Below, in pieces: positions 50,641 through 63,312 of a DNA stretch of 64,000 bases (within the stretch, counting starts at the first letter, position 1; every line of letters starts with the position of its first letter). The notes beneath the pieces were generated by a model. It did not search any database, was not told the origin of the DNA, and saw nothing but the letters and a program-made list of their open reading frames with translations. Origin of the DNA: Bosea sp. Tri-49 (GTDB taxonomy: Bacteria; Pseudomonadota; Alphaproteobacteria; Rhizobiales; Beijerinckiaceae); NCBI RefSeq assembly GCF_003952665.1, contig NZ_CP017946.1:3224001-3288000 (forward strand), given 5' to 3'. A program made the translations under genes and the position numbers.

Positions 50641-51831
50641 CTAGGCAGCCACCTCGCGCGCATGTGCGCCGAGATAGGCGATGGCAGCCGCAACACCGCC
50701 ACTGCCATGTGGGATGCCCTTCGCCTGCAGCGCCATCTCGACCGCGCTCAGGCTGCCCAGCACCATCGGCGCGTTGACATGACCCATATGGGCGATACGA
50801 AAGGCCCTGCCGGAGAGATCACCGATAGCGATGCCGAGCGTCACACCGCAGACCTGCCGTGCATAGTCGGTGATCGCAGCCGGGTCGCCATCGACGAGGA
50901 TCGTGGTGACCGAGAGGGCGCGCTGCGATGGTTCGACGACATTGTAGCTCAGCACCTGGCCTTCAGCCCATTTCGACATGGCGGCATGGGTCGCCGAGGC
51001 CAACAGGGCGTGACGCTCCCAGACGGCGTCGAGGCTCTCAGTGAGGATCATGTCGAGGGCGGCACGCAGGCCGAACATCAGGTGCTCGGGCGGCGTGCCG
51101 CAATGCTTCATGTAGAGCAGCGGGTTCAGGCGCGCGGTCCAGTCCCAATAGGGCGTACGCATCGTCGCGCGCTGATGCGCATGCAGCGCCTTCCCGTTCG
51201 CGGCGACGAAGGCGAGGCCGGGCGGCGTCATCAGGCCCTTCTGCGAGGCCGACATCGCGACATCGACGCCCCAGGCGTCCATCTCGAACGGCATGCAGCC
51301 GATCGAGGCGACGCCGTCGACCATGTAGAGCGCCGGATGGCCGGCCGCATCGATGGCGCGGCGGATCGCCGGGATATCGTTGACCACGCCCGAGGCGGTG
51401 TCGATCTGGACGGTCAGGACTGCCTTGATCTCATGGCCCGTGTCCTGGCGCAGGCGCTCCTCGACGGCAGCCGGATCGACCGCCGCGCGCCAGGAACCGG
51501 CGAGCACCTCGACCTCGGCGCCCATGAACCTTGCCGTCTCGCCCCAGCCGACCGCGAAGCGGCCGCTCGCGAGCACCAGGATCTTGTCGCCGCGCGCGAG
51601 GACATTGGTGAGCGCCGCCTCCCAGCCGCCATGGCCGTTGGCGGCATAGAGGAAGGTCTCGCCGGTCGTACGGAAGATCGCCTTGAGATCGTCGAGCAGG
51701 CTTTCGGTCAAGTCGACGATCGTCGTCGAGGAAAGCTCCTCGGCAGGCCGGATCATCGCCTGCAGCACACGATCGGGAACATTGGTCGGACCCGGCATCG
51801 CGAGCAGGGCCCGGCCATTGGCGACACTCAT
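50641..51831 (-). CDS. Class V aminotransferase (alanine/serine-glyoxylate type)
   Basis: A 396-residue PLP enzyme of the fold-type I class V family. Motifs: AMPGPTNVPDRVLQAM, YAANGHGGWEAALTN, YMVDGVASIGCMPFEMDAWG with the PLP Asp, and MSASQKGLMTPPGL with the PLP Lys. Alanine-glyoxylate or serine-glyoxylate transaminases are closest; pyridoxamine-pyruvate or 2-aminoadipate activity cannot be excluded. A ribosome site AGGAG precedes ATG 51831. It is not in the same operon as the downstream catabolic cluster but is a possible donor for it. Confidence 0.9.
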   Translation of the reverse strand: MSVANGRALLAMPGPTNVPDRVLQAMIRPAEELSSTTIVDLTESLLDDLKAIFRTTGETFLYAANGHGGWEAALTNVLARGDKILVLASGRFAVGWGETARFMGAEVEVLAGSWRAAVDPAAVEERLRQDTGHEIKAVLTVQIDTASGVVNDIPAIRRAIDAAGHPALYMVDGVASIGCMPFEMDAWGVDVAMSASQKGLMTPPGLAFVAANGKALHAHQRATMRTPYWDWTARLNPLLYMKHCGTPPEHLMFGLRAALDMILTESLDAVWERHALLASATHAAMSKWAEGQVLSYNVVEPSQRALSVTTILVDGDPAAITDYARQVCGVTLGIAIGDLSGRAFRIAHMGHVNAPMVLGSLSAVEMALQAKGIPHGSGGVAAAIAYLGAHAREVAA

Positions 51832-51945
51832 GGAAAGCTCCTGCCTTGCGCTGCGACGTGACCAGCCCCGCCGCAACCGGCTGGCGCTATGCACAATCCT
51901 TGCTGATGGTGCAAACCGGCGCCGCGATACAGCGGCACCGCTCGA

Positions 51946-53819: not shown

Positions 53820-55040
53820 TCAGATGATGTTCGCCTCGCGCAAGGGACGGCCGGCGATGATCCGCTCATGGCCGAGATCGGCAAGGTCGAGCGTTAGGTA
53901 GCGACCGTTGACGATATGCTCGGCAAGCCCACGGCCAACTGCCGGGGATTGCTGCAAACCATGACCCGAGAAGCCGTTGGCGAGATAGAGATTGGGCACG
54001 CCGACCGCCGGGCCGAGGATGGCGTTACCGTCGAGGCCGTTCATGTCGTAGGGGCCGGCCCAGGCGCGGCCGGGCTTGATCGCCTCGAAGGCAGGGACGC
54101 GATGGGCGAGCGGCGCCCAGACATATTCCTCGAAGAAGGACCAGTCGACATCCTCGATATCGGCGTCGGTCTCGACCCATTCGCGGTCGAGCTCGGCCGG
54201 CGGCGAGGAGCCGCAGATGAACAGCTGCCCCTCACTGCCGCGCTTGCCTTCGGGGCGGACATAGGCGCCGGACGTGTCGATCAGCAGCGGGCAATTGTCG
54301 ACCTCGCCCTTGCAGGTGAAGCTGTAGACATAGCGCTTCATCGACTTGACCGGGATGTCGACGCCGGCGGTGGCGGCGAGCCTCGCGCCATGCGTGCCGG
54401 AGGCGTTGACGGCGGCGGCGCAGGCGATGCGGCTGCCATCGGCTAATTCGACACCCGTGACACGGCCACCCTCGACGACATAACCGGTGACCTCACCCTG
54501 GCGATATTCGACGCCGAGCGAACGCGCCTTCTTGCGGAAGGCCTGCAGCAAAGCCCAACCGTCGAACCAGCCTTCGCCGCTGACGCCATAGGTGCCGCAG
54601 AGGAGATCAGAAGTATTTAGCCAGCTGAATTTGCTGCGCAGCATTTCTGCAGCATAAAGCGCGACATCAGCGCCCTCCTTCTGCTGAAGACTTTGATTTT
54701 GCTCGAGAACCTTGCGCCCCTCATCGCTGGCGACATAGAGATAGCCGCCCTCGTGCAGGTCGATCGACGGCGCCTCGCCATTGACTGCAAGGTGCTGGCC
54801 GATGTTGCGCAAAAAATCGATGCCGAAGAGCGAGACGCGGATGTTGACCGCGCTGGAAAACTGCTGGCGGATCGAAGCGGCCGAGAGCGCCGAGGCCGAG
54901 AGCCGATAGGTCGGGTCCTTCTCGACGACGATGACCTTGCCCTTGAAGCCGGGATCGCTGGCAAGATGGTAAGCGACGGAGGAGCCGATCGCCGCGCCCC
55001 CCACGATGACGATGTCGGCCGAGCCTGTAGCGGAAGACAT
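53820..55040 (-). CDS. FAD-dependent amine/amino-acid oxidoreductase (DAO family)
   Basis: A 406-residue flavoprotein of the D-amino-acid oxidase/sarcosine oxidase fold. The FAD site IVIVGGAAIGSSVAYHLAS is at residue about 10, and LYLANGFSGHGLQQSPAVGR near the C-terminus is the usual second FAD site. GSADIV and the Tyr/Trp-rich middle (FFEEYVWAPLAHRVPAFEAI) fit oxidases of secondary amines. Context with LysR and antiquitin-type aldehyde dehydrogenase suggests a pipecolate or cyclic-amine oxidase (amaA-like), but glycine or sarcosine oxidase is possible. Confidence 0.88.
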   Translation of the reverse strand: MSSATGSADIVIVGGAAIGSSVAYHLASDPGFKGKVIVVEKDPTYRLSASALSAASIRQQFSSAVNIRVSLFGIDFLRNIGQHLAVNGEAPSIDLHEGGYLYVASDEGRKVLEQNQSLQQKEGADVALYAAEMLRSKFSWLNTSDLLCGTYGVSGEGWFDGWALLQAFRKKARSLGVEYRQGEVTGYVVEGGRVTGVELADGSRIACAAAVNASGTHGARLAATAGVDIPVKSMKRYVYSFTCKGEVDNCPLLIDTSGAYVRPEGKRGSEGQLFICGSSPPAELDREWVETDADIEDVDWSFFEEYVWAPLAHRVPAFEAIKPGRAWAGPYDMNGLDGNAILGPAVGVPNLYLANGFSGHGLQQSPAVGRGLAEHIVNGRYLTLDLADLGHERIIAGRPLREANII

Positions 55041-55112
55041 GAGTGACCTGCGCAAGCGGTGGTTCGTGATCTCAGCGCATGAATGACGCCTCGACCGGCG
55101 CTTGTCGAGAGG

Positions 55113-56027
55113 CTAGCTCGTCTCTCCGCATTCGCCGAGCAGCCAGTCGCGAAAGGCGATCACCGCCGGCAGACTCGCCTTGGCTTCGGGGTAGACGAGG
55201 TAATAGCCCTCGGGACCGCGCACCGGCCGATCGACCGGAATGACCAGCGCGCCCGAGCGCAATTCCTCCTCGATCAAGAAGCGGGGCACGATCGCGACGC
55301 CGAGCCCCGCCACCGCCGCCTGCGCCACCATGGCGAACTGCTCGAAGCGCGGCCCCATCAACGCCCGCTCCGGCGGCAGGCCCTGCTGCTCCAGCCAATT
55401 GGCCCAGGCGCGCGGTCGGGTCGATTGTTGCAGCAAGGGCTGGCGGAGCAGATCGGCGGCCTCCCGGATGCCGACCCGCGTGACCAGCGCCGGCGCCGCG
55501 ACCGGCACGACCTCCTCACCCATCAAACGATGCAGGCGGGCACCCGGCCAGACCGGATGGCCGAAATGGATGGCGGCGTCGGCCTCGTCATGGGCGAAGT
55601 CGAAGGGCACCAGCTTGGTCGAGAAATTGATGGTGACGCCGGGATGCGCCTCGGTGAAGCGTGGCAGACGCGGGATCAGCCAGCGCGTGCCGAAGGTCGG
55701 CAGGATGGCGAGGTGGAGGAGACCGGCGCCGCCGCGAAAGGCCATGGCCGAGAGCGTCGCTGCGGCGAGCCGCGAGAGCCCGTCGCGGACCTCGGCGGCA
55801 TAGGCACCACCGGCCGGCGTCAGGCTGACGCGCTTCTTCACGCGCTCGAACAACTTGAGCCCGAGATTCTGCTCGAGCAGCGCGATCTGGCGGCTGACAG
55901 CGCCTTGCGTCAGGTTGAGTTCCTCGGCAGCGCGGGTGAAGCTGCCATGACGCGCCGCCGCCTCGAAGGCGGCGAGCGCCGAGAGCGAGGGCACCGAAAG
56001 CCGGCCGGGAACGATCTCCGAGTTCAT
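55113..56027 (-). CDS. LysR family transcriptional regulator
   Basis: A 304-residue LysR regulator with N-terminal helix-turn-helix (LSALAAFEAAARHGSFTRAA, then LNLTQGAVSRQIALLEQNLG) and a periplasmic-binding-type effector domain. GcvA-like paralogues share this start. It is divergent from the aldehyde dehydrogenase cluster and on the same strand as the FAD oxidase, so it probably controls both directions. The effector is unknown; an intermediate of the pathway is plausible. Confidence 0.93.
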   Translation of the reverse strand: MNSEIVPGRLSVPSLSALAAFEAAARHGSFTRAAEELNLTQGAVSRQIALLEQNLGLKLFERVKKRVSLTPAGGAYAAEVRDGLSRLAAATLSAMAFRGGAGLLHLAILPTFGTRWLIPRLPRFTEAHPGVTINFSTKLVPFDFAHDEADAAIHFGHPVWPGARLHRLMGEEVVPVAAPALVTRVGIREAADLLRQPLLQQSTRPRAWANWLEQQGLPPERALMGPRFEQFAMVAQAAVAGLGVAIVPRFLIEEELRSGALVIPVDRPVRGPEGYYLVYPEAKASLPAVIAFRDWLLGECGETS

Positions 56028-56208
56028 GATCTCATCTCATCAAGTCGTGAGAACATATCGATTGCGGAGAGCGACCGGAAGAGGGCATTGTGCGGCCGAA
56101 CTGGCAGGCTTCCGGCAAGCCGCTATCCCTGGATGGACCGGCATCCGGGTTCATTTGCGTTGCTGATGCTGCGCGATGTCCCGATGGCGGCAGGAGCATA
56201 GGCGAACG

Positions 56209-57729
56209 ATGACGACCTCCCTTCCGAAAGATGCTCTTGCCCTGCTGAAGCGCCTCGGCGTGCAGGAGAGCGCCTATGCCGGCGCCGGCCTTTCCGCCCG
56301 CTCGCCGATCACCGGCGAGACGGTCGCGACGCTGCGCGAAACTTCGCCGGCGGAAGCCGAGGCCGCGATCGGCCGGGCCCAATCCGCCTTTCTCGCCTGG
56401 CGCAAGGTGCCGGCGCCGCGGCGCGGCGAGTTCGTCCGCCTGCTCGGCGAGGAACTGCGCACGCACAAGGCCGATCTTGGCCTGCTGGTGACGCTGGAAG
56501 CCGGCAAGGTCACCTCCGAGGGCCTCGGCGAGGTCCAGGAAATGATCGATATCTGCGACTTCGCCGTCGGCCTGTCGCGCCAGCTCTACGGCCTGACCAT
56601 CGCGACCGAGCGGCCGAACCATCGCATGATGGAAACCTGGCACCCGCTCGGCGTCTGCGGCGTGATCTCGGCCTTCAACTTCCCGGTCGCGGTCTGGTCG
56701 TGGAATGCGGCGCTCGCCTTCGTCTGCGGCGACAGCGTCGTCTGGAAGCCGTCGGAGAAGACCCCGCTGACCGCGCTCGCCGTGCAGGCGATCACCCTGA
56801 AGGCGATGAAGCGCTTCGGCCCCGAGGCGCCGGTCGGCCTGTCGGAAATCCTGATCGGCGGCCGAGAGATCGGCGACATCCTGGTGCAGGACCATCGTGT
56901 CCCGATCGTCTCGGCGACAGGCTCGACCCGGATGGGCAAGGAAGTCGGCCAGAAGCTCGCCGCCCGCTTCGCCCGCGCCATCCTCGAGCTCGGCGGCAAC
57001 AACGCCGCGATCGTCGCGCCCTCCGCCGATCTCGATCTCGCGCTGCGCGGCATCGCCTTTGCGGCAATGGGCACCGCCGGCCAGCGCTGCACCACGCTGC
57101 GCCGCCTGATCGTGCATGAGAGCGTCTACGACCAGCTCGTGCCGAAGCTCGCCAAGGTCTACGGCTCGGTGAAGATCGGCGATCCCCGTGAGGCCGGCGT
57201 GCTGGTCGGCCCGCTGGTCGACGAGGCCGCGTATCAGGGCATGCAGAAGGCGCTGTCCGAGGCCAAGGCCGAGGGCGGCAAGGTCCATGGCGGCGAAAAG
57301 GTCGATGTCGGCGCGGGCGGCTTCTATGTCCGGCCGGCCCTGGTCGAGATGCCCAGGCAATGTGGCCCGGTCGAGCGCGAGACCTTCGCGCCGATCCTCT
57401 ATGTGATGAAGTACAAGTCGGTCGAGGAAGCGATCTCGCTGCAGAACGCTGTCGGCGCCGGCCTGTCCTCCTCGATCTTCACCCTCAACATGCGCGAGGC
57501 CGAGCTGTTCGTCTCCGATGAGGGCTCGGATTGCGGCATCGCCAACGTCAATATCGGCCCCTCCGGCGCCGAGATCGGCGGCGCCTTCGGTGGCGAGAAG
57601 GAGACCGGCGGCGGCCGCGAGGCCGGCTCGGACGCCTGGAAGGCCTATATGCGCCGCGCCACCAATACGCTGAACTACGGCACCACGCTGCCGCTGGCGC
57701 AGGGCGTCAGCTTCGACGTCGACGCCTGA
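56209..57729 (+). CDS. amaB: 2-aminoadipate 6-semialdehyde dehydrogenase (ALDH7/antiquitin family)
   Basis: A 506-residue NAD-dependent aldehyde dehydrogenase. It matches antiquitin-type ALDH7 over its length: [70 protein letters not shown] with the catalytic Cys, and [20 protein letters not shown]. The family oxidises 2-aminoadipate 6-semialdehyde (in equilibrium with piperideine-6-carboxylate) to 2-aminoadipate in lysine catabolism. Lying with glutaryl-CoA dehydrogenase and a CoA-transferase supports this; the symbol follows the Pseudomonas name. ATG 56209 is chosen over an upstream GTG. Confidence 0.9.
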
Positions 57730-57751
57730 TCGAGATCAAGGGGAGAGCACC

Positions 57752-58969
57752 ATGGCCGAAGCCGCGCGCAAGACCGCCCATAGCCACAAGCTGGCTGAGT
57801 TCAACTGGCAGGACCCCTTCCTGCTCGACGACCAGCTCAACGAGGACGAGCGGCTGATCCGCGACACCGCGCGCGACTATGCGCAGGAGAAGCTGCTGCC
57901 GCGCGTGGCTGACGCATATCTCGAGGAAAAGACCGAGCGCGGCATCTTCAACGAGATGGGCGAGCTCGGCCTGCTCGGCGTCACCGTTCCCGAAGAGTAT
58001 GGCTGCGCCGGCGCCAACTACGTCTCCTATGGCCTCGTCGCCCGCGAGGTCGAGCGCATCGACTCCGGCTACCGCTCGATGATGTCGGTGCAGTCCTCGC
58101 TGGTGATGTACCCGATCTACGCCTATGGCGACGAGAACCAGCGCAAGAAGTACCTGCCCAAGCTCGCCTCGGGCGAATGGGTCGGCTGCTTTGGCCTGAC
58201 CGAGCCGGACGCCGGCTCCGATCCCGGCGGCATGAAGACCCGGGCCGAGAAGGTCGCCGACGGCTACAAGCTCAGCGGCTCGAAGATGTGGATCTCGAAC
58301 TCGCCGATCGCCGACGTCTTCGTCATCTGGGCGAAATCGGCCGCGCATGACAACCAGATCCGCGGCTTCATCCTCGAAAAGGGCATGAAGGGCCTGTCCG
58401 CCCCGAAGATCGGCGGCAAGCTCAGCTTGCGCGCCTCGATCACCGGCGAAGTCGTCATGGACGGCGTGATCGTGCCGGAAGAGAACCTGCTGCCGAACGT
58501 CTCGGGCCTCAAGGGCCCGTTCGGCTGCCTCAACCGCGCCCGCTACGGCATCTCTTGGGGCGCGATGGGCGCTGCCGAGGACTGCTTCCACCGCGCCCGC
58601 CAATACGGGCTCGACCGCAAGCAGTTCAACAAGCCACTGGCCCAGACGCAGCTCTTCCAGAAGAAGCTCGCCGACATGGTGACCGAGATCACGCTCGGCC
58701 TGCAGGGCTCGCTCCGCGTCGGCCGCCTGCTCGACGCTGGCCAGATGGCGCCGGAGATGATCTCGCTTGTGAAGCGCAACAATTGCGGCAAGGCGCTCGA
58801 CATCGCCCGCCAGGCCCGCGACATGCACGGCGGCAACGGCATCTCGATCGAGTACCATGTCATGCGCCATGCGGCGAACCTCGAGACGGTCAACACCTAT
58901 GAGGGCACGCACGACGTCCACGCGCTGATTTTGGGCCGGGCCGTCACCGGGCTGCAGGCGTTCTTCTGA
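57752..58969 (+). CDS. gcdH: Glutaryl-CoA dehydrogenase
   Basis: A 405-residue flavoenzyme converting glutaryl-CoA to crotonyl-CoA and CO2. It follows known enzymes closely: [74 protein letters not shown] and [18 protein letters not shown], whose Glu is the catalytic base. The Arg in DSGYRS is the glutarate-binding residue of the family. It follows amaB by 22 bp in the same operon. Confidence 0.96.
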
Positions 58970-58997
58970 TCCTTCGAAAGGTGCAGCGGATCGGCCG

Positions 58998-59318
58998 ATG
59001 AGAGGCGCCAAGCCCGGACACGTTTCGAGCTTGGCGGCTTACCTATTCATCGCCTTTGCCGCCTCGGCCACGGCAGCGGACGTACCCAATCGGAAAGGCG
59101 TTCCGTTCGTGATCGACCCGTTCGCGCCTTCAGCTGAACAGCCTCTACGGATTACGCGGCCGAGCCGGGCGGATTGGTTCTATACCGGGACTTTCTGGAG
59201 CGGTTTCGGGCCTGTTACACATCACGGCCTTGCGACGATCAAGGATGTCGAACAGTTCGATGGCTCCGAGCCCCGCCCTATTCCCAAATTTCCACCACTG
59301 AGCCTGACGATCCCATGA
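58998..59318 (+). CDS. Small exported protein of unknown function
   Basis: A 106-residue protein with a signal-peptide-like start (SSLAAYLFIAFAASATAA) and a mature part rich in Pro, Phe and Trp (SRADWFYTGTFWSGFGPVTH). It ends in an ATGA overlap with the CoA-transferase gene, so it is in the operon and may be translationally coupled. The ribosome site is weak. I recognise no family. A gene for an exported protein inside a cytosolic catabolic operon is unusual. Confidence 0.6.
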   Translation: MRGAKPGHVSSLAAYLFIAFAASATAADVPNRKGVPFVIDPFAPSAEQPLRITRPSRADWFYTGTFWSGFGPVTHHGLATIKDVEQFDGSEPRPIPKFPPLSLTIP

Positions 59319-60499
59319 CCCCTCCTCTCGCCGGCCTGCGCGTCCTCGAACTGGCGCGCATCCTTGCAGGCCCGTGGATCGGGCAGCTCCTCGCCGATCT
59401 CGGTGCCGATGTCGTCAAGGTCGAGGCGCCGGAGGGCGACGACACCCGCAAATGGGGACCTCCCTTCGTCGAGGGCGCGGGCGAGGAGCCTCTCTCGGCC
59501 GCCTATTTTCACTCGGCCAATCGCGGCAAGCGCTCGATCACGGCCGATTTCCGCACGGTGGAAGGCCAGGCGCTGGTGCACCGTCTCGCCGCGCATGCCG
59601 ACGTCGTGATCGAGAACTTCAAGGTCGGCGGCCTCGTCAAATACGGGCTCGACGCGGCCTCGATGCGCAAGGCCTATCCGCGCCTGATCTACTGCTCGGT
59701 CACCGGCTTCGGCCAGGATGGGCCCTATGCGCCGCGCGCCGGCTACGACTTCCTGGTCCAGGGCATGGGCGGACCGATGTCGGTCACCGGCGAGCCTGGT
59801 GGTGCGCCGATGAAGGCGGGCTATGCCGTCGCTGACATCTATACCGGCCTCTATGCCACCACCGGTATCCTCGCGGCACTGCGCCGGCGCGATGCGACCG
59901 GCGAAGGCGCTGTCCTCGACATGGCGCTGCTCGATGCGCAGGTTGCCGTGCTCGGCAACCAGGCGATGAACTATCTCACCTCCGGCAAGGCGCCTTCGCG
60001 TTTGGGCAATGCCCATCCCAACATCGTGCCCTATGACGTCTTCCCAGTGGCGGACGGGCACATCATCATCGCCACCGGCAATGACGGGCAGTGGCGCAAG
60101 CTCTGCGAAGCCGTCGGTGATACCGGCTTTGCCAGCGAATCCGACTACATCGACAACCGCTCGCGCGTCGCCAACCGCGTTGCCCTGACGGCGCGCCTCA
60201 ACGCGCTGACCGGCCGCTTTGCCAAGCTCGACCTGCTGGCGAAGCTGGAGGCGGTCGGCGTGCCGGCCGGCCCGATCAACACGATCGAGGAGGTCTTCGC
60301 CGACCCGCAGGTCAAGGCCCGCGGCGTACGCGTCGACCTCGAGAATCCGGCGGCAAAGGCCGGCTCGACCCCGACCGTCGCCTCGCCGATCGTGCTCGAC
60401 GGCGTCAGGCAGGTCGCGAGCCGGCCGAGCCCACGCCTCGGCGAGCATGCCGACGAGATCCTGAACGACCCGGCCTGGGGAGGGCCATACAATGGCTGA
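59315..60499 (+). CDS. Family III CoA-transferase (CaiB/BaiF), probable glutarate CoA-transferase
   Basis: A 394-residue class III CoA-transferase. Signatures are PLAGLRVLELARILAGPW, GADVVKVEAPEGDDTRKWGP, HSANRGKRSI, KYGLDA and AGYAVADIYTGLYATTGILA, whose Asp forms the acyl-enzyme. CaiB/BaiF members include formyl-, carnitine- and succinyl-CoA:glutarate CoA-transferases. Directly behind gcdH in the operon, making glutaryl-CoA from glutarate is the simplest role; a donor such as succinyl-CoA is assumed. The start at 59315 overlaps the small exported gene and the 3' end overlaps the ThDP gene by eight bases. Confidence 0.9.
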   Translation: MTPPLAGLRVLELARILAGPWIGQLLADLGADVVKVEAPEGDDTRKWGPPFVEGAGEEPLSAAYFHSANRGKRSITADFRTVEGQALVHRLAAHADVVIENFKVGGLVKYGLDAASMRKAYPRLIYCSVTGFGQDGPYAPRAGYDFLVQGMGGPMSVTGEPGGAPMKAGYAVADIYTGLYATTGILAALRRRDATGEGAVLDMALLDAQVAVLGNQAMNYLTSGKAPSRLGNAHPNIVPYDVFPVADGHIIIATGNDGQWRKLCEAVGDTGFASESDYIDNRSRVANRVALTARLNALTGRFAKLDLLAKLEAVGVPAGPINTIEEVFADPQVKARGVRVDLENPAAKAGSTPTVASPIVLDGVRQVASRPSPRLGEHADEILNDPAWGGPYNG

Positions 60500-62168
60500 G
60501 CGCACTGGCGGGCAGATCCTCGTCGACCAACTCCTGATCCACGGCGCGACCGACGCCTTCTGCGTGCCGGGCGAGAGCTATCTCGCCGTGCTCGACGCGC
60601 TGCACGACGCCGATATGAAGGTCACTATCTGCCGGGCCGAGGGCGGCGCGGCGATGATGGCCGAAGCCGCCGGCAAGCTCACCGGCAAGCCCGGCATCTG
60701 CTTCGTGACGCGCGGCCCCGGAGCAACCAATGCCTCGCCCGGCATCCATATCGCCGACCAGGACTCGACCCCGATGATCCTGTTCGTCGGCCAGATCGAG
60801 CGCGGCATGCGCGAGCGCGAGGCCTTCCAGGAACTCGACTACCGCGCCGTGTTCGGCACGATGACCAAATGGGCGACCGAGATCGACGATGCCGCGCGCA
60901 TTCCCGAGATCATCAGCCGCGCCTTCCATGTCGCGACCGCCGGCCGGCCCGGCCCGGTGGTGATCGCGCTGCCCGAGGACGTGCTGACCGATCTCGCGGA
61001 CGTGCCGGACGCAGCGCCCTACCAGGTCACCGAGACGCATCCCTCGCTGCTGCAGACCATCGACCTGCAGAAGCGGCTCTGGGCGGCGAAGGCACCGATC
61101 GCCATTCTCGGCGGCTCGCGCTGGGACCCGCAGGCGATCGCGCGCTTCCAGCGCTTCGCCGAACGCTTCGACCTGCCGGTCGCGGTCTCGTTCCGCCGGC
61201 AGATGGTCTTCCCGGCCGATCATCCGAATTTCGCCGGCGATCTCGGCATTGGCCCCAATCCGAAGCTGCTGAAGCGCATCCAGGACAGCGACCTCGTTCT
61301 CCTGGTCGGCGGGCGCCTTTCGGAGATGCCGAGCCAGTCTTACACGCTGTTCGGCATCCCCAATCCGGGCCGGCCGCTGGTGCATGTCCATCCCGATCCG
61401 GAAGAGCTCGGCCGCGTCTACCGGCCGGAGCTGGCGATCAACGCCTCGCCGACCGCCTTCTGCGCCGCGCTCGAGACGGTGCATCCGCCGCAGGTGATCC
61501 CTTGGGCCGGCGCAGCGGCCGAGGCTCACGAATCCTATCTCGGCTGGAGTGAGCAGCCGGCGCCAGTGCCGGGCAAGTTCCACCCCGGCGAGATGGTGAC
61601 CTGGCTACGCCGCAACATCCCGGCCGACGCGATCATCTGCAACGGCGCCGGCAATTATGCGACCTGGGTGCACCGCTTCCACCGCTTCACCAAATTCGCG
61701 ACACAGCTCGCGCCGACCTGCGGCTCGATGGGCTATGGCGTGCCGGCGGCGATCGGCGCCAAGCGTCTCTTTCCGGACAGAACGGTGATCGCCTTTGCCG
61801 GCGATGGCTGCTTCCTGATGAACGGCCAGGATTTCGCGACGGCGGTGCAGTACGAGCTGCCGGTGATCGTCGTCGTCGTCGACAACGGCATGTACGGCAC
61901 CATCCGCATGCACCAGGAGAAGCACTATCCCGGCCGCGTCTCGGCGACGACGCTGAAGAACCCCGACTTCGCCGCCTATGCCAAGGCTTTCGGCGGCCAT
62001 GGCGAGCGGGTCGAGACCACCGAGGAGTTCGCGCCGGCCTTCGAGCGGGCGCTGAGCAGCGGCAAGCCGGCGATCATCCATTGCCTGCTCGATCCCGAGG
62101 CGATCACGCCGGCCAAGTCGCTCTCGACCATCCGCGCCGAGGCGCTGGAGGCTCAGGGCAAGGGCTGA
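60492..62168 (+). CDS. Thiamine-diphosphate-dependent enzyme (acetolactate-synthase-like), substrate unassigned
   Basis: A 558-residue ThDP enzyme with three domains. The catalytic Glu is Glu50 in CRAEGGAAMMAEAAGKL, GPGATNASPGIHIA follows, and the ThDP/Mg motif is AGDGCFLMNGQDF ... VVDNGMYG (GDG near 437-439). It lacks the regulatory partner and neighbours of valine synthesis. It also does not resemble oxalyl-CoA decarboxylase well, although it follows a CaiB/BaiF gene. Within a lysine/glutarate operon it could decarboxylate 2-oxoadipate to glutarate semialdehyde (inference). It overlaps the CoA-transferase gene and its last 16 bases overlap the convergent cytochrome gene. Confidence 0.85.
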   Translation: MAERTGGQILVDQLLIHGATDAFCVPGESYLAVLDALHDADMKVTICRAEGGAAMMAEAAGKLTGKPGICFVTRGPGATNASPGIHIADQDSTPMILFVGQIERGMREREAFQELDYRAVFGTMTKWATEIDDAARIPEIISRAFHVATAGRPGPVVIALPEDVLTDLADVPDAAPYQVTETHPSLLQTIDLQKRLWAAKAPIAILGGSRWDPQAIARFQRFAERFDLPVAVSFRRQMVFPADHPNFAGDLGIGPNPKLLKRIQDSDLVLLVGGRLSEMPSQSYTLFGIPNPGRPLVHVHPDPEELGRVYRPELAINASPTAFCAALETVHPPQVIPWAGAAAEAHESYLGWSEQPAPVPGKFHPGEMVTWLRRNIPADAIICNGAGNYATWVHRFHRFTKFATQLAPTCGSMGYGVPAAIGAKRLFPDRTVIAFAGDGCFLMNGQDFATAVQYELPVIVVVVDNGMYGTIRMHQEKHYPGRVSATTLKNPDFAAYAKAFGGHGERVETTEEFAPAFERALSSGKPAIIHCLLDPEAITPAKSLSTIRAEALEAQGKG

Positions 62169-62707
62169 TCGCGGCCGAACCAGATCCGACGCATCAGCCC
62201 GTCCTTCAGCACGAACTGATGGAGGAGGGCGGCGCCGGCATGGATCGCTGCGAGCGTGGCCAGCGTGGCGAAGAGCGCCTCGTGCAGGCGTAGCATCGCC
62301 GCGTAGATCGCTTTGTCCGGACCGATCGGATGCGGCACGGCGATCCAGCCATAGAACAGCGTCGGGATCTGGATCGGCGCAGCCGAGACCATCAGCAGGC
62401 CGGTCAGCGGCAGCGCAAGCAGGCAAAGATAGAGCCCGGCCCGAACGCTTGCCGCGGCGTGCGCTTGCCAAGCCGGCATGGCGAGCGACTGCGGCTCCGG
62501 CAAGGCCAGCCGCAACAGGAGGCGTAGGAAGACGAGCGCAGCGACAGTGAGCCCGATCGATTTGTGCCATTGGTAGAGCGTGAAGCGGCTGATCAGATCG
62601 CGCGTCTCGTCGCGCATCACTTGCGCAAGCCCGAACTGCACAAGAACCAGCGCCAGCGTCAGCCAGTGCAGGGTGATGATCAGGGGATGCCAACGTCTCG
62701 GGCGCAT
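62153..62707 (-). CDS. Cytochrome b561 family protein
   Basis: A 184-residue membrane protein with four helices and haem-ligand His in WHPLIITLHWLTLALV, YQWHKSIGLTVAALVFLRLL, LRLHEALFATL and HAGAALLHQF. Bacterial b561 proteins move electrons from quinol to or from periplasmic partners. It is adjacent to a YceI protein 38 bp upstream in the same direction, a pairing often seen. The 3' end overlaps the convergent ThDP gene by 16 bp. Confidence 0.93.
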   Translation of the reverse strand: MRPRRWHPLIITLHWLTLALVLVQFGLAQVMRDETRDLISRFTLYQWHKSIGLTVAALVFLRLLLRLALPEPQSLAMPAWQAHAAASVRAGLYLCLLALPLTGLLMVSAAPIQIPTLFYGWIAVPHPIGPDKAIYAAMLRLHEALFATLATLAAIHAGAALLHQFVLKDGLMRRIWFGRDQPLP

Positions 62708-62745
62708 CGCAAATCCGAGCCCTCGCCTGTTATGACATCAGCTGT

Positions 62746-63312
62746 TCAGCGCAGGACCTCGCCGCGGATCGCCAGGTCGACCTGATCGTCCACGACATTG
62801 ACGTCTCGCCCGATGTCGAAGGCGTTGCGGGAGAAAGCCGTGGTGGCGCGGAAGGGCAGCCGCTCGCCGGGCCGGATCGCCGCCGGGTCGCGCTCCGCGA
62901 TCGCGCTGACACTCACCAGCTGCGTGATGGTGCGGATCGTCAACCGGCCACGGATCACGAGGCTGCGCCCATCGACCCGGTTGATCTGCTCGGAGACGAA
63001 GGTCGCCGTCGGATAGCGACCGACATCGAGCATGTTCTCGCCCTTGATGAAGCCATCGACCAGCGGCGTGCCGGTGCGGAGCGAGGCGGTCTCGATCGTC
63101 ATCCTGATGCGACTGCGCTCGGGACGATCGAAGTCGAGGGAAACGGCTCCGTCGACATGGTCGAAGATGCCCGAGGCCGTCGGCACGCCGAAGCGCTTGG
63201 CGACGAAGGAGACTTCGCTGGCGCCCTGCCGAAGCGAGCCCGACGATTGTGCGGAAGCCGCTATCGCAAGAGCGGTGGACAGGAACAGCGCAAGGAGAGA
63301 GCGGATCGCCAT
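62746..63312 (-). CDS. YceI family periplasmic lipid-binding protein
   Basis: A 188-residue lipocalin-like protein with a signal peptide (MAIRSLLALFLSTALAIAAS, then AQS). YceI features are EVSFVAKRFGVPTASGIFDH, FDRPERSRIRMTI, ENMLDVGRYPTATFVS and RGRLTIRTITQLVSV. Such proteins bind polyprenoid or other lipids. It is the first gene of a pair with cytochrome b561, where a polyprenyl or quinone-related role is plausible. Confidence 0.92.
   Translation of the reverse strand: MAIRSLLALFLSTALAIAASAQSSGSLRQGASEVSFVAKRFGVPTASGIFDHVDGAVSLDFDRPERSRIRMTIETASLRTGTPLVDGFIKGENMLDVGRYPTATFVSEQINRVDGRSLVIRGRLTIRTITQLVSVSAIAERDPAAIRPGERLPFRATTAFSRNAFDIGRDVNVVDDQVDLAIRGEVLR

What the first reader, a model, noticed from the sequence alone, without database searches (positions are those of the whole stretch)
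53820..62168. Catabolic cluster for lysine/pipecolate to glutaryl-CoA with an unassigned ThDP enzyme
Seen: a FAD amine oxidase, LysR regulator, ALDH7/antiquitin-type dehydrogenase, glutaryl-CoA dehydrogenase, CaiB/BaiF CoA-transferase and ThDP enzyme. The last five plus-strand genes, including a small exported protein, are closely spaced or overlapping. Known: ALDH7 enzymes oxidise 2-aminoadipate semialdehyde, GcdH uses glutaryl-CoA, and family III CoA-transferases make glutaryl-CoA in mammals. Inference: the cluster runs pipecolate or lysine to 2-aminoadipate to 2-oxoadipate to glutarate to crotonyl-CoA, and the ThDP enzyme decarboxylates 2-oxoadipate to glutarate semialdehyde. That would differ from the known HglS (2-hydroxyglutarate) route.
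Basis: partly seen in the sequence, partly recalled or inferred. Interest (0 to 1): 0.72.

Follow-up and report, generated by a model that had tools for sequence, protein, structure and literature searches.

The report
Probable 2-oxoadipate decarboxylase in lysine breakdown
A soil bacterium's gene cluster for breaking down lysine contains an unnamed thiamine-dependent enzyme that probably removes carbon dioxide from the intermediate 2-oxoadipate, a step for which this genome lacks two known dedicated enzymes; close relatives of it sit beside lysine and glutarate genes in many other bacteria.

Summary
The cluster is real: ALDH7-type Δ1-piperideine-6-carboxylate/AASA dehydrogenase, glutaryl-CoA dehydrogenase, glutarate CoA-transferase-like CaiB and a ThDP enzyme of unassigned subfamily PRK08199, with a divergent LysR regulator and FAD oxidoreductase, in a Bosea-like genome. 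The "small exported protein" is doubtful. The ThDP gene recurs beside ALDH7, GcdH or CaiB in differing arrangements across Alpha- and Betaproteobacteria; one supported 96-row clade holds 46 of the 47 such rows. In most Acidovorax loci it stands with LysR, ALDH7 and an aminotransferase; a related module elsewhere carries HglS instead. In the 14 Rhizobiaceae-like genomes examined it directly follows CaiB. In four loci it adjoins a semialdehyde dehydrogenase, implying an aldehyde product. The genome lacks HglS and has one OGDH-type E1. Best reading: 2-oxoadipate to glutarate semialdehyde, oxidised to glutarate by an ALDH; CaiB and GcdH finish. Against: in an even alphaproteobacterial draw only 3 of 60 other family members show this context, ThDP and HglS co-occur, the fold is acetolactate-synthase-like, and nothing was assayed. 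The pipecolate entry is unsupported. Bold extension: the CaiB–ThDP pair supplies glutaryl-CoA for BioZ biotin synthesis in Rhizobiaceae.

The parts
53820..55055 (-). FAD-dependent oxidoreductase (DAO family); candidate 2-aminoadipate (or cyclic/secondary amine) dehydrogenase; substrate open
   Evidence: PF01266 177 bits; no NCBIfam model over its cut-off; best PDB relatives sarcosine oxidase/dimethylglycine dehydrogenase, at most 84 bits; its cluster c3 lies within 7 kb of ThDP in 19 of 81 loci, window included
55113..56027 (-). LysR regulator of GcvA type, divergent from the catabolic operon
   Evidence: NF008352 297 bits, cut-off 288; similar LysR beside ThDP or HglS clusters elsewhere
56176..57729 (+). 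ALDH7/antiquitin: piperideine-6-carboxylate / 2-aminoadipate-6-semialdehyde dehydrogenase
   Evidence: NF050084 813 bits over cut-off 730; PDB alpha-aminoadipic semialdehyde dehydrogenases/antiquitins; only copy in the genome at 1e-150
57752..58969 (+). glutaryl-CoA dehydrogenase (GcdH)
   Evidence: PDB: best chain 4w9u named acyl-CoA dehydrogenase 739 bits, then glutaryl-CoA dehydrogenases 3gnc 627 and 1sir 594 bits; Pfam acyl-CoA dehydrogenase domains
58998..59318 (+). ORF with signal-like N-terminus; probably not a conserved gene
   Evidence: GC3 0.64, no family, no relative among the other loci held then
59315..60499 (+). family III CoA-transferase, probable succinyl-CoA:glutarate CoA-transferase
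   Evidence: NF052585 best but below cut-off; PDB chains 4ed9 (CaiB/BaiF family, 472 bits), 10uh (formyl-CoA transferase, 286) and 9br6 (succinate--hydroxymethylglutarate CoA-transferase, 282)
60492..62168 (+). ThDP enzyme, PRK08199 subfamily; proposed 2-oxoadipate decarboxylase
   Evidence: NF006052 911 bits over cut-off 539, function unassigned; neighbourhoods and tree; model pLDDT 89.5

Best explanation
The cluster degrades lysine-derived 2-aminoadipate-6-semialdehyde to crotonyl-CoA through free glutarate. ALDH7 makes 2-aminoadipate; a deaminating enzyme (perhaps the FAD oxidoreductase) gives 2-oxoadipate; the ThDP enzyme, an acetolactate-synthase-fold protein, decarboxylates 2-oxoadipate to glutarate semialdehyde (5-oxopentanoate) and CO2; an aldehyde dehydrogenase (unlinked succinate-semialdehyde type, or ALDH7 itself) oxidises it to glutarate; CaiB transfers CoA from succinyl-CoA; GcdH gives crotonyl-CoA. 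Shown: gene families, clade, conserved linkages, absence of HglS and of a second OGDH-type E1. Inferred: substrate, product and direction of every step.
For: (1) Recurrent but rearranged linkage. Within 7 kb of the ThDP gene in 81 loci (80 nearest relatives found plus the window): ALDH7 23, GcdH 17, CaiB 12, DAO 19, aminotransferase 10, saccharopine-dehydrogenase-like 7. Arrangements differ: Bosea ALDH7>GcdH>CaiB>ThDP; Microvirga (6 loci) SacchDH>ALDH7>ThDP; Acidovorax ALDH7, DAO and, in 6 of 7 loci, an aminotransferase before ThDP; Achromobacter/Bordetella ThDP>GcdH; Azospirillum LysR<|ThDP>ALDH7. (2) Tree of 152 rows: a 96-row clade (SH-aLRT 99) holds 46 of the 47 lysine-context rows; the other, L130 (52% identity), has SacchDH, ThDP, ALDH7. 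(3) In a draw of 143 Alphaproteobacteria spread over families, 23 genomes carry both ThDP and ALDH7; 4 pairs lie within about 5 kb. Leaving out the window's own genome it is 3 of 22 against about 0.06 expected for random placement (p 4e-5, my estimate with a 4.2 Mb genome). Co-occurrence in that draw: ALDH7 odds ratio 3.1 (p 0.004), CaiB 5.7 (p 3e-6), not corrected for genome size or kinship. (4) CaiB is directly upstream of ThDP in the 14 ThDP-bearing genomes of family f113 in the phylum draw, 14 of 15 places. (5) HglS loci L162/L163 carry LysR, HglS, an FAD-linked oxidase, ALDH7 and an aminotransferase 63-65% identical to the one preceding ThDP in Acidovorax L027. (6) An aldehyde product: among 169 loci with a ThDP relative (own paralogues aside) a dehydrogenase of the ketoglutaric-/succinic-semialdehyde group adjoins ThDP in L094, L150, L184, L201. 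(7) G000 has no PF07063 and one OGDH-type E1. (8) A. tumefaciens makes biotin precursor from lysine, 2-oxoadipate or glutarate and needs CaiB (PMC7645780, passages and Discussion).
Against: No activity data. Of the 60 other ThDP places in the class draw only 3 (L102, L107, L130) have ALDH7, GcdH, CaiB or SacchDH relatives nearby at the identity limits used, some on short contigs; half of the 96-row clade (50 rows) has no such label. ThDP and full-length HglS co-occur (15 of 299 genomes have both; odds ratio 2.4), so there is no replacement signal across genomes. Of 37 genomes in the phylum draw with both ThDP and ALDH7, 4 (the window's included) have them adjacent, while HglS is within 6 kb of ALDH7 in 12 of 27 with both (coordinates). 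PMC7286885 states that fitness data in Sinorhizobium meliloti support HglS in lysine use (passage). Bradyrhizobium members at 66-67% have other neighbours. No glutarate semialdehyde dehydrogenase lies in the window cluster, and the four adjacent ones elsewhere are below curated cut-offs. The nearest solved folds are acetolactate/acetohydroxyacid synthases, which ligate. The single OGDH could act on 2-oxoadipate. The loci are the closest relatives, not a random sample.
Confidence: 0.65

Rival explanations
1. The ordinary 2-oxoglutarate dehydrogenase complex converts 2-oxoadipate straight to glutaryl-CoA; CaiB only rescues stray glutarate, and the ThDP enzyme acts on a different 2-oxo acid or is a carboligase carried along.
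For: One OGDH-type E1 is present; OGDH/OADH redundancy is stated for mammals (start of the abstract of PMC7002488, listing); nearest folds are carboligases; some family members have other neighbours (R. leguminosarum L097, Bradyrhizobium), and 57 of 60 other places in the class draw show no such context.
Against: It does not explain why ThDP pairs with CaiB in 14 of 14 f113 genomes or with ALDH7, GcdH or semialdehyde dehydrogenases elsewhere; A. tumefaciens needs CaiB for biotin although its precursors include lysine and 2-oxoadipate.
Confidence: 0.18
2. The ThDP enzyme is a pyruvate-oxidase-like 2-oxoadipate oxidase that yields glutarate directly, so no semialdehyde dehydrogenase is needed.
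For: No semialdehyde dehydrogenase other than ALDH7 in the window cluster and none next to the R. leguminosarum CaiB-ThDP pair in its annotation (one aldehyde dehydrogenase gene lies about 7 kb downstream); pyruvate oxidases are distant relatives (194 bits).
Against: Acetolactate synthases score much better than pyruvate oxidases (up to 273 bits); adjacent semialdehyde dehydrogenases in L094, L150, L184, L201 point to an aldehyde.
Confidence: 0.07
3. The ThDP enzyme decarboxylates another lysine-derived 2-oxo acid, 2-oxo-6-aminohexanoate, as 5-guanidino-2-oxopentanoate decarboxylase does in arginine breakdown.
For: The 5-guanidino-2-oxopentanoate decarboxylase model matches at 225 bits, well below its cut-off of 500.
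Against: ALDH7 and the saccharopine-dehydrogenase-like gene imply the AASA/2-aminoadipate branch, whose 2-oxo acid is 2-oxoadipate; in Acidovorax L027 the aminotransferase beside ThDP is best matched by an aspartate transaminase model and follows a glutamate/aspartate-type binding protein, both below curated cut-offs.
Confidence: 0.06

Closest known systems
HglS / DUF1338 (PF07063) route, P. putida and plants
   Same: Consumes 2-oxoadipate made from lysine; in L162/L163 its gene sits with LysR, ALDH7 and an aminotransferase
   Different: HglS is an Fe(II) oxygenase giving D-2-hydroxyglutarate (PMC7286885, passages); this genome has no PF07063 and the proposed enzyme uses ThDP and leads to glutarate
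2-oxoadipate dehydrogenase complex (DHTKD1)
   Same: ThDP-dependent decarboxylation of 2-oxoadipate on the way to glutaryl-CoA
   Different: Multienzyme complex making glutaryl-CoA directly; only one OGDH-type E1 found here
A. tumefaciens CaiB-BioZ glutaryl-CoA supply (PMC7645780)
   Same: Lysine or 2-oxoadipate feed biotin precursor synthesis; CaiB makes glutaryl-CoA from glutarate (passages)
   Different: The enzyme between 2-oxoadipate and glutarate was not named in the passages and the Discussion that I read; the ThDP neighbour of caiB is proposed here
Catabolic acetolactate synthase / acetohydroxyacid synthase
   Same: Domain order and fold, 24-29% identity among the 50 best fold matches except two CoA-lyase rows at 23-25%
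   Different: Far below the AHAS model cut-off (TIGR00118 332 vs 538 bits); lysine/glutarate gene context

Membership tests
L-piperidine-6-carboxylate / AASA dehydrogenase (NF050084) | score over curated cut-off | tested here: met
   813 vs 730 bits
PRK08199 / NF006052 ThDP protein | score over curated cut-off | tested here: met
   911 vs 539 bits; no function assigned to the model
Biosynthetic acetolactate synthase (TIGR00118) | score over curated cut-off | tested here: not met
   332 vs 538 bits
HglS route | PF07063 protein in the genome | tested here: not met
   0 matches in G000; of 14 control genomes it rings in 2, E. coli among them
Dedicated 2-oxoadipate dehydrogenase | second OGDH-type E1 besides the TCA enzyme | tested here: not met
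   one full-length TIGR00239 gene in G000; G268 in the same search has two over the cut-off
Succinate-glutarate CoA-transferase (NF052585) | score over curated cut-off | tested here: not met
   584 vs 750 bits, though the best family; 0 of 143 Alphaproteobacteria pass
Glutaryl-CoA dehydrogenase | close relation to solved, named GcdH | tested here: met
   627 bits to 3gnc, 594 to 1sir; the NCBIfam model GlutCoADH_Des is not met, 224 vs 470
2-oxoadipate decarboxylase (proposed) | releases CO2 and glutarate semialdehyde from 2-oxoadipate | not testable with these tools
   needs an enzyme assay

The most novel reading that the evidence does not exclude
A third dedicated bacterial fate of 2-oxoadipate: a stand-alone acetolactate-synthase-fold 2-oxoadipate decarboxylase. 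In Rhizobiaceae the conserved CaiB-ThDP pair is a glutaryl-CoA supply module for BioZ-dependent biotin synthesis, kept even where HglS handles lysine as food.
Probability: 0.4. Interest if true: 0.75.

Novelty: new variant of a known kind. Interest (0 to 1): 0.62.

Why it matters
It would give a widespread unnamed enzyme subfamily (58 of 143 Alphaproteobacteria in a draw spread over families carry a member at E 1e-150; not all need share the function) a role in lysine breakdown, would explain why a glutarate CoA-transferase sits in 2-aminoadipate-type clusters, and would supply a deletable candidate for the step between 2-oxoadipate and glutarate that feeds biotin synthesis in A. tumefaciens and relatives. 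A decarboxylase for 2-oxoadipate would also be of use for making glutarate.

Tried and rejected
Rejected: HglS and ThDP as strict alternatives (they co-occur). Rejected: the small ORF as a conserved exported protein (no large-database search). Rejected: biosynthetic acetolactate synthase. Left open: FAD enzyme as pipecolate oxidase; only one pair was compared. The alignment of the ThDP enzyme to solved acetolactate synthases did not single out residues that would fix the substrate. The structure model confirmed fold only. Paper searches listed no paper whose title or abstract start describes a bacterial ThDP 2-oxoadipate decarboxylase in lysine breakdown; the library holds open-licence papers only, supplements were not readable, and transposon-fitness databases could not be searched. 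Papers seen: PMC7645780 passages and Discussion; PMC7286885 passages; PMC5653290 passages (Phaeobacter inhibens uses 2-aminoadipate and glutarate branches, 2-oxoadipate not detected); PMC9007349 and PMC12543098 passages (nothing on this step). PMC7002488: listing only. The 2019 P. putida lysine paper is not held.
Full report
What is there. The window is from a Bosea-like alphaproteobacterium: among the 120 best protein hits, those named Bosea have 78-88% identity to the ThDP protein (unnamed ones reach 97%), and the Bosea lathyri copy has 93%. The region holds, divergent, a DAO-family FAD oxidoreductase and a GcvA-type LysR regulator on the minus strand, then ALDH7, GcdH, CaiB and a ThDP enzyme on the plus strand. 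ALDH7 passes the curated model for L-piperidine-6-carboxylate dehydrogenase. GcdH is close to solved glutaryl-CoA dehydrogenases. CaiB is best matched by succinate-glutarate CoA-transferase but below that model's cut-off; no match in a 143-genome alphaproteobacterial draw passes it either. Of the 25 best NCBIfam matches shown (of 56), the ThDP enzyme passes the cut-off of NF006052 (PRK08199) alone, a subfamily without assigned function. A small ORF between GcdH and CaiB looks non-coding or strain-specific.

What the own genome lacks and has. No HglS (PF07063). One full-length OGDH-type E1. One ALDH7 at 1e-150, two CaiB-type genes at 1e-130, two genes over the SSADH cut-off elsewhere, and a 67%-identical relative of the saccharopine-dehydrogenase-family protein that precedes ALDH7 in Microvirga, unlinked. 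The next ThDP relative in the genome is 31% identical.

Neighbourhoods. The 80 nearest relatives in named genomes were compared with the window by ORF clustering. ALDH7 is within 7 kb in 23 of 81, GcdH in 17, CaiB in 12. The partners come in different combinations: all three in Bosea and some relatives, ALDH7 with a saccharopine-dehydrogenase-like gene in Microvirga (6 loci), ALDH7 with an FAD oxidoreductase and in 6 of 7 loci an aminotransferase in Acidovorax, GcdH in Achromobacter and Bordetella, ALDH7 in Azospirillum, in one case with the saccharopine-dehydrogenase-like gene. With the labels used for the tree, 38 of the 80 carry ALDH7, GcdH, CaiB or the saccharopine-dehydrogenase-like gene; 42 do not. 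Counter-cases: 13 of the 81 loci, 12 of them Bradyrhizobium, carry a DadA-like dehydrogenase (c7) beside ThDP, several with an Asp/Glu-racemase-family gene, and an R. leguminosarum plasmid copy (L097, 58%) sits with hydantoinase/oxoprolinase genes, an aminotransferase and an FAD oxidoreductase; the substrate there may differ.

Tree. In 152 rows, 47 with a lysine-context label, a clade of 96 (SH-aLRT 99) holds 46 labelled and 50 unlabelled rows. The label needs 14 changes against 40.5 on average in shuffles; near-copies help that. The remaining labelled row, L130, has a saccharopine-dehydrogenase-like gene, ThDP and ALDH7 in a row at 52% identity, so the role may reach beyond the clade or have arisen twice.

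Unbiased draws. In 143 Alphaproteobacteria spread over families, 58 carry ThDP (E 1e-150), 38 ALDH7, 53 CaiB, 5 HglS. Of the 60 ThDP places other than the window's, 3 carry the lysine label (L102, L107, L130). ThDP and ALDH7 are together in 23 genomes; four pairs (G000, G141, G036, G087) are within about 5 kb. Without G000, which was picked for its cluster, that is 3 of 22 against about 0.06 expected. In 299 genomes of the phylum 66 carry ThDP (E 1e-180), 77 any HglS match (40 full-length), 71 ALDH7. Among the 71 with ALDH7: 23 ThDP only, 13 full-length HglS only, 14 both, 21 neither. So there is no exclusion, and genome size may inflate the co-occurrence. HglS lies within 6 kb of ALDH7 in 12 of 27 genomes with both; ThDP in 4 of 37, the window's genome included (coordinates).

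Parallel loci. HglS loci L162 and L163 read LysR, HglS, FAD-linked oxidase, ALDH7, aminotransferase; the aminotransferase is 63-65% identical to that preceding ThDP in Acidovorax L027. A similar module thus carries HglS in one lineage and ThDP in another. This is the strongest pointer to 2-oxoadipate as substrate.

CaiB pair and biotin. The 14 ThDP-bearing genomes of family f113 in the phylum draw all have CaiB directly upstream (14 of 15 places; the exception is a second copy in G189). Named Shinella and Phyllobacterium loci show the pair too. Eight of the 14 also have HglS, and PMC7286885 cites fitness data that support HglS in S. meliloti, so in such genomes the pair is unlikely to be the only lysine route. 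In A. tumefaciens a caiB mutant needs biotin, and resting cells make biotin precursor from lysine, 2-oxoadipate or glutarate (PMC7645780; passages and the Discussion). The enzyme between 2-oxoadipate and glutarate was not named there in what I read. The ThDP gene beside caiB is the natural candidate; BioZ was not searched for in any genome here. In two Sinorhizobium plasmid records the ThDP gene keeps the locus but caiB is not beside it (L096, L101).

Product. A dehydrogenase of the ketoglutaric-/succinic-semialdehyde group adjoins ThDP in four of 169 loci with a ThDP relative (L094, L150, L184, L201; ThDP identity 63, 49, 62, 65%), all below curated cut-offs. That fits an omega-semialdehyde acid as product.

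Structure. AlphaFold2 model mean pLDDT 89.5, pTM 0.90; best PDB matches are B. subtilis acetolactate synthase and other acetohydroxyacid synthases, TM up to 0.87 by query length. This says fold, not substrate, and leaves carboligation open.

Verdict. The pipecolate entry is not supported. The biotin link is a bolder extension (0.4).

Noticed in passing
G022/L164, and G256, G264, G269, G316 (coordinates): Partial, divergent PF07063 matches (80-95 bits, model positions within about 14-293; in G256 split into two weaker pieces) lie within a few kb of ALDH7: perhaps a second, shorter HglS-like form in lysine loci.
   Followed up: no
53820-55055 (-): The FAD oxidoreductase carries an N-terminal RQQFS-type stretch that I recall from human FOXRED1, whose substrate is unknown; not tested by any search.
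   Followed up: no
L162:9546-12122: Aminotransferase and DAO domains are fused in one 859-residue ORF in an HglS-type lysine locus.
   Followed up: partly
G320 C165:8360-12748: A ThDP family member (53% identity) and full-length HglS lie about 1.6 kb apart in one genome.
   Followed up: no
50641-51894 (-): Class V aminotransferase-like gene, best model L-aspartate--glyoxylate aminotransferase BhcA, 326 bits (cut-off 650).
   Followed up: no
62153-63312 (-): Cytochrome b561-type gene (PF01292) overlapping the 3' end of ThDP tail to tail by 16 bp, followed by a second minus-strand ORF (62746-63312) that I took for YceI-like by eye, not tested by family search.
   Followed up: no
L015, L046 (cluster c107): A DapB-like reductase gene (158 bits, dapB cut-off 122, in L015) sits inside the GcdH-CaiB-ThDP or ALDH7 cluster.
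   Followed up: partly
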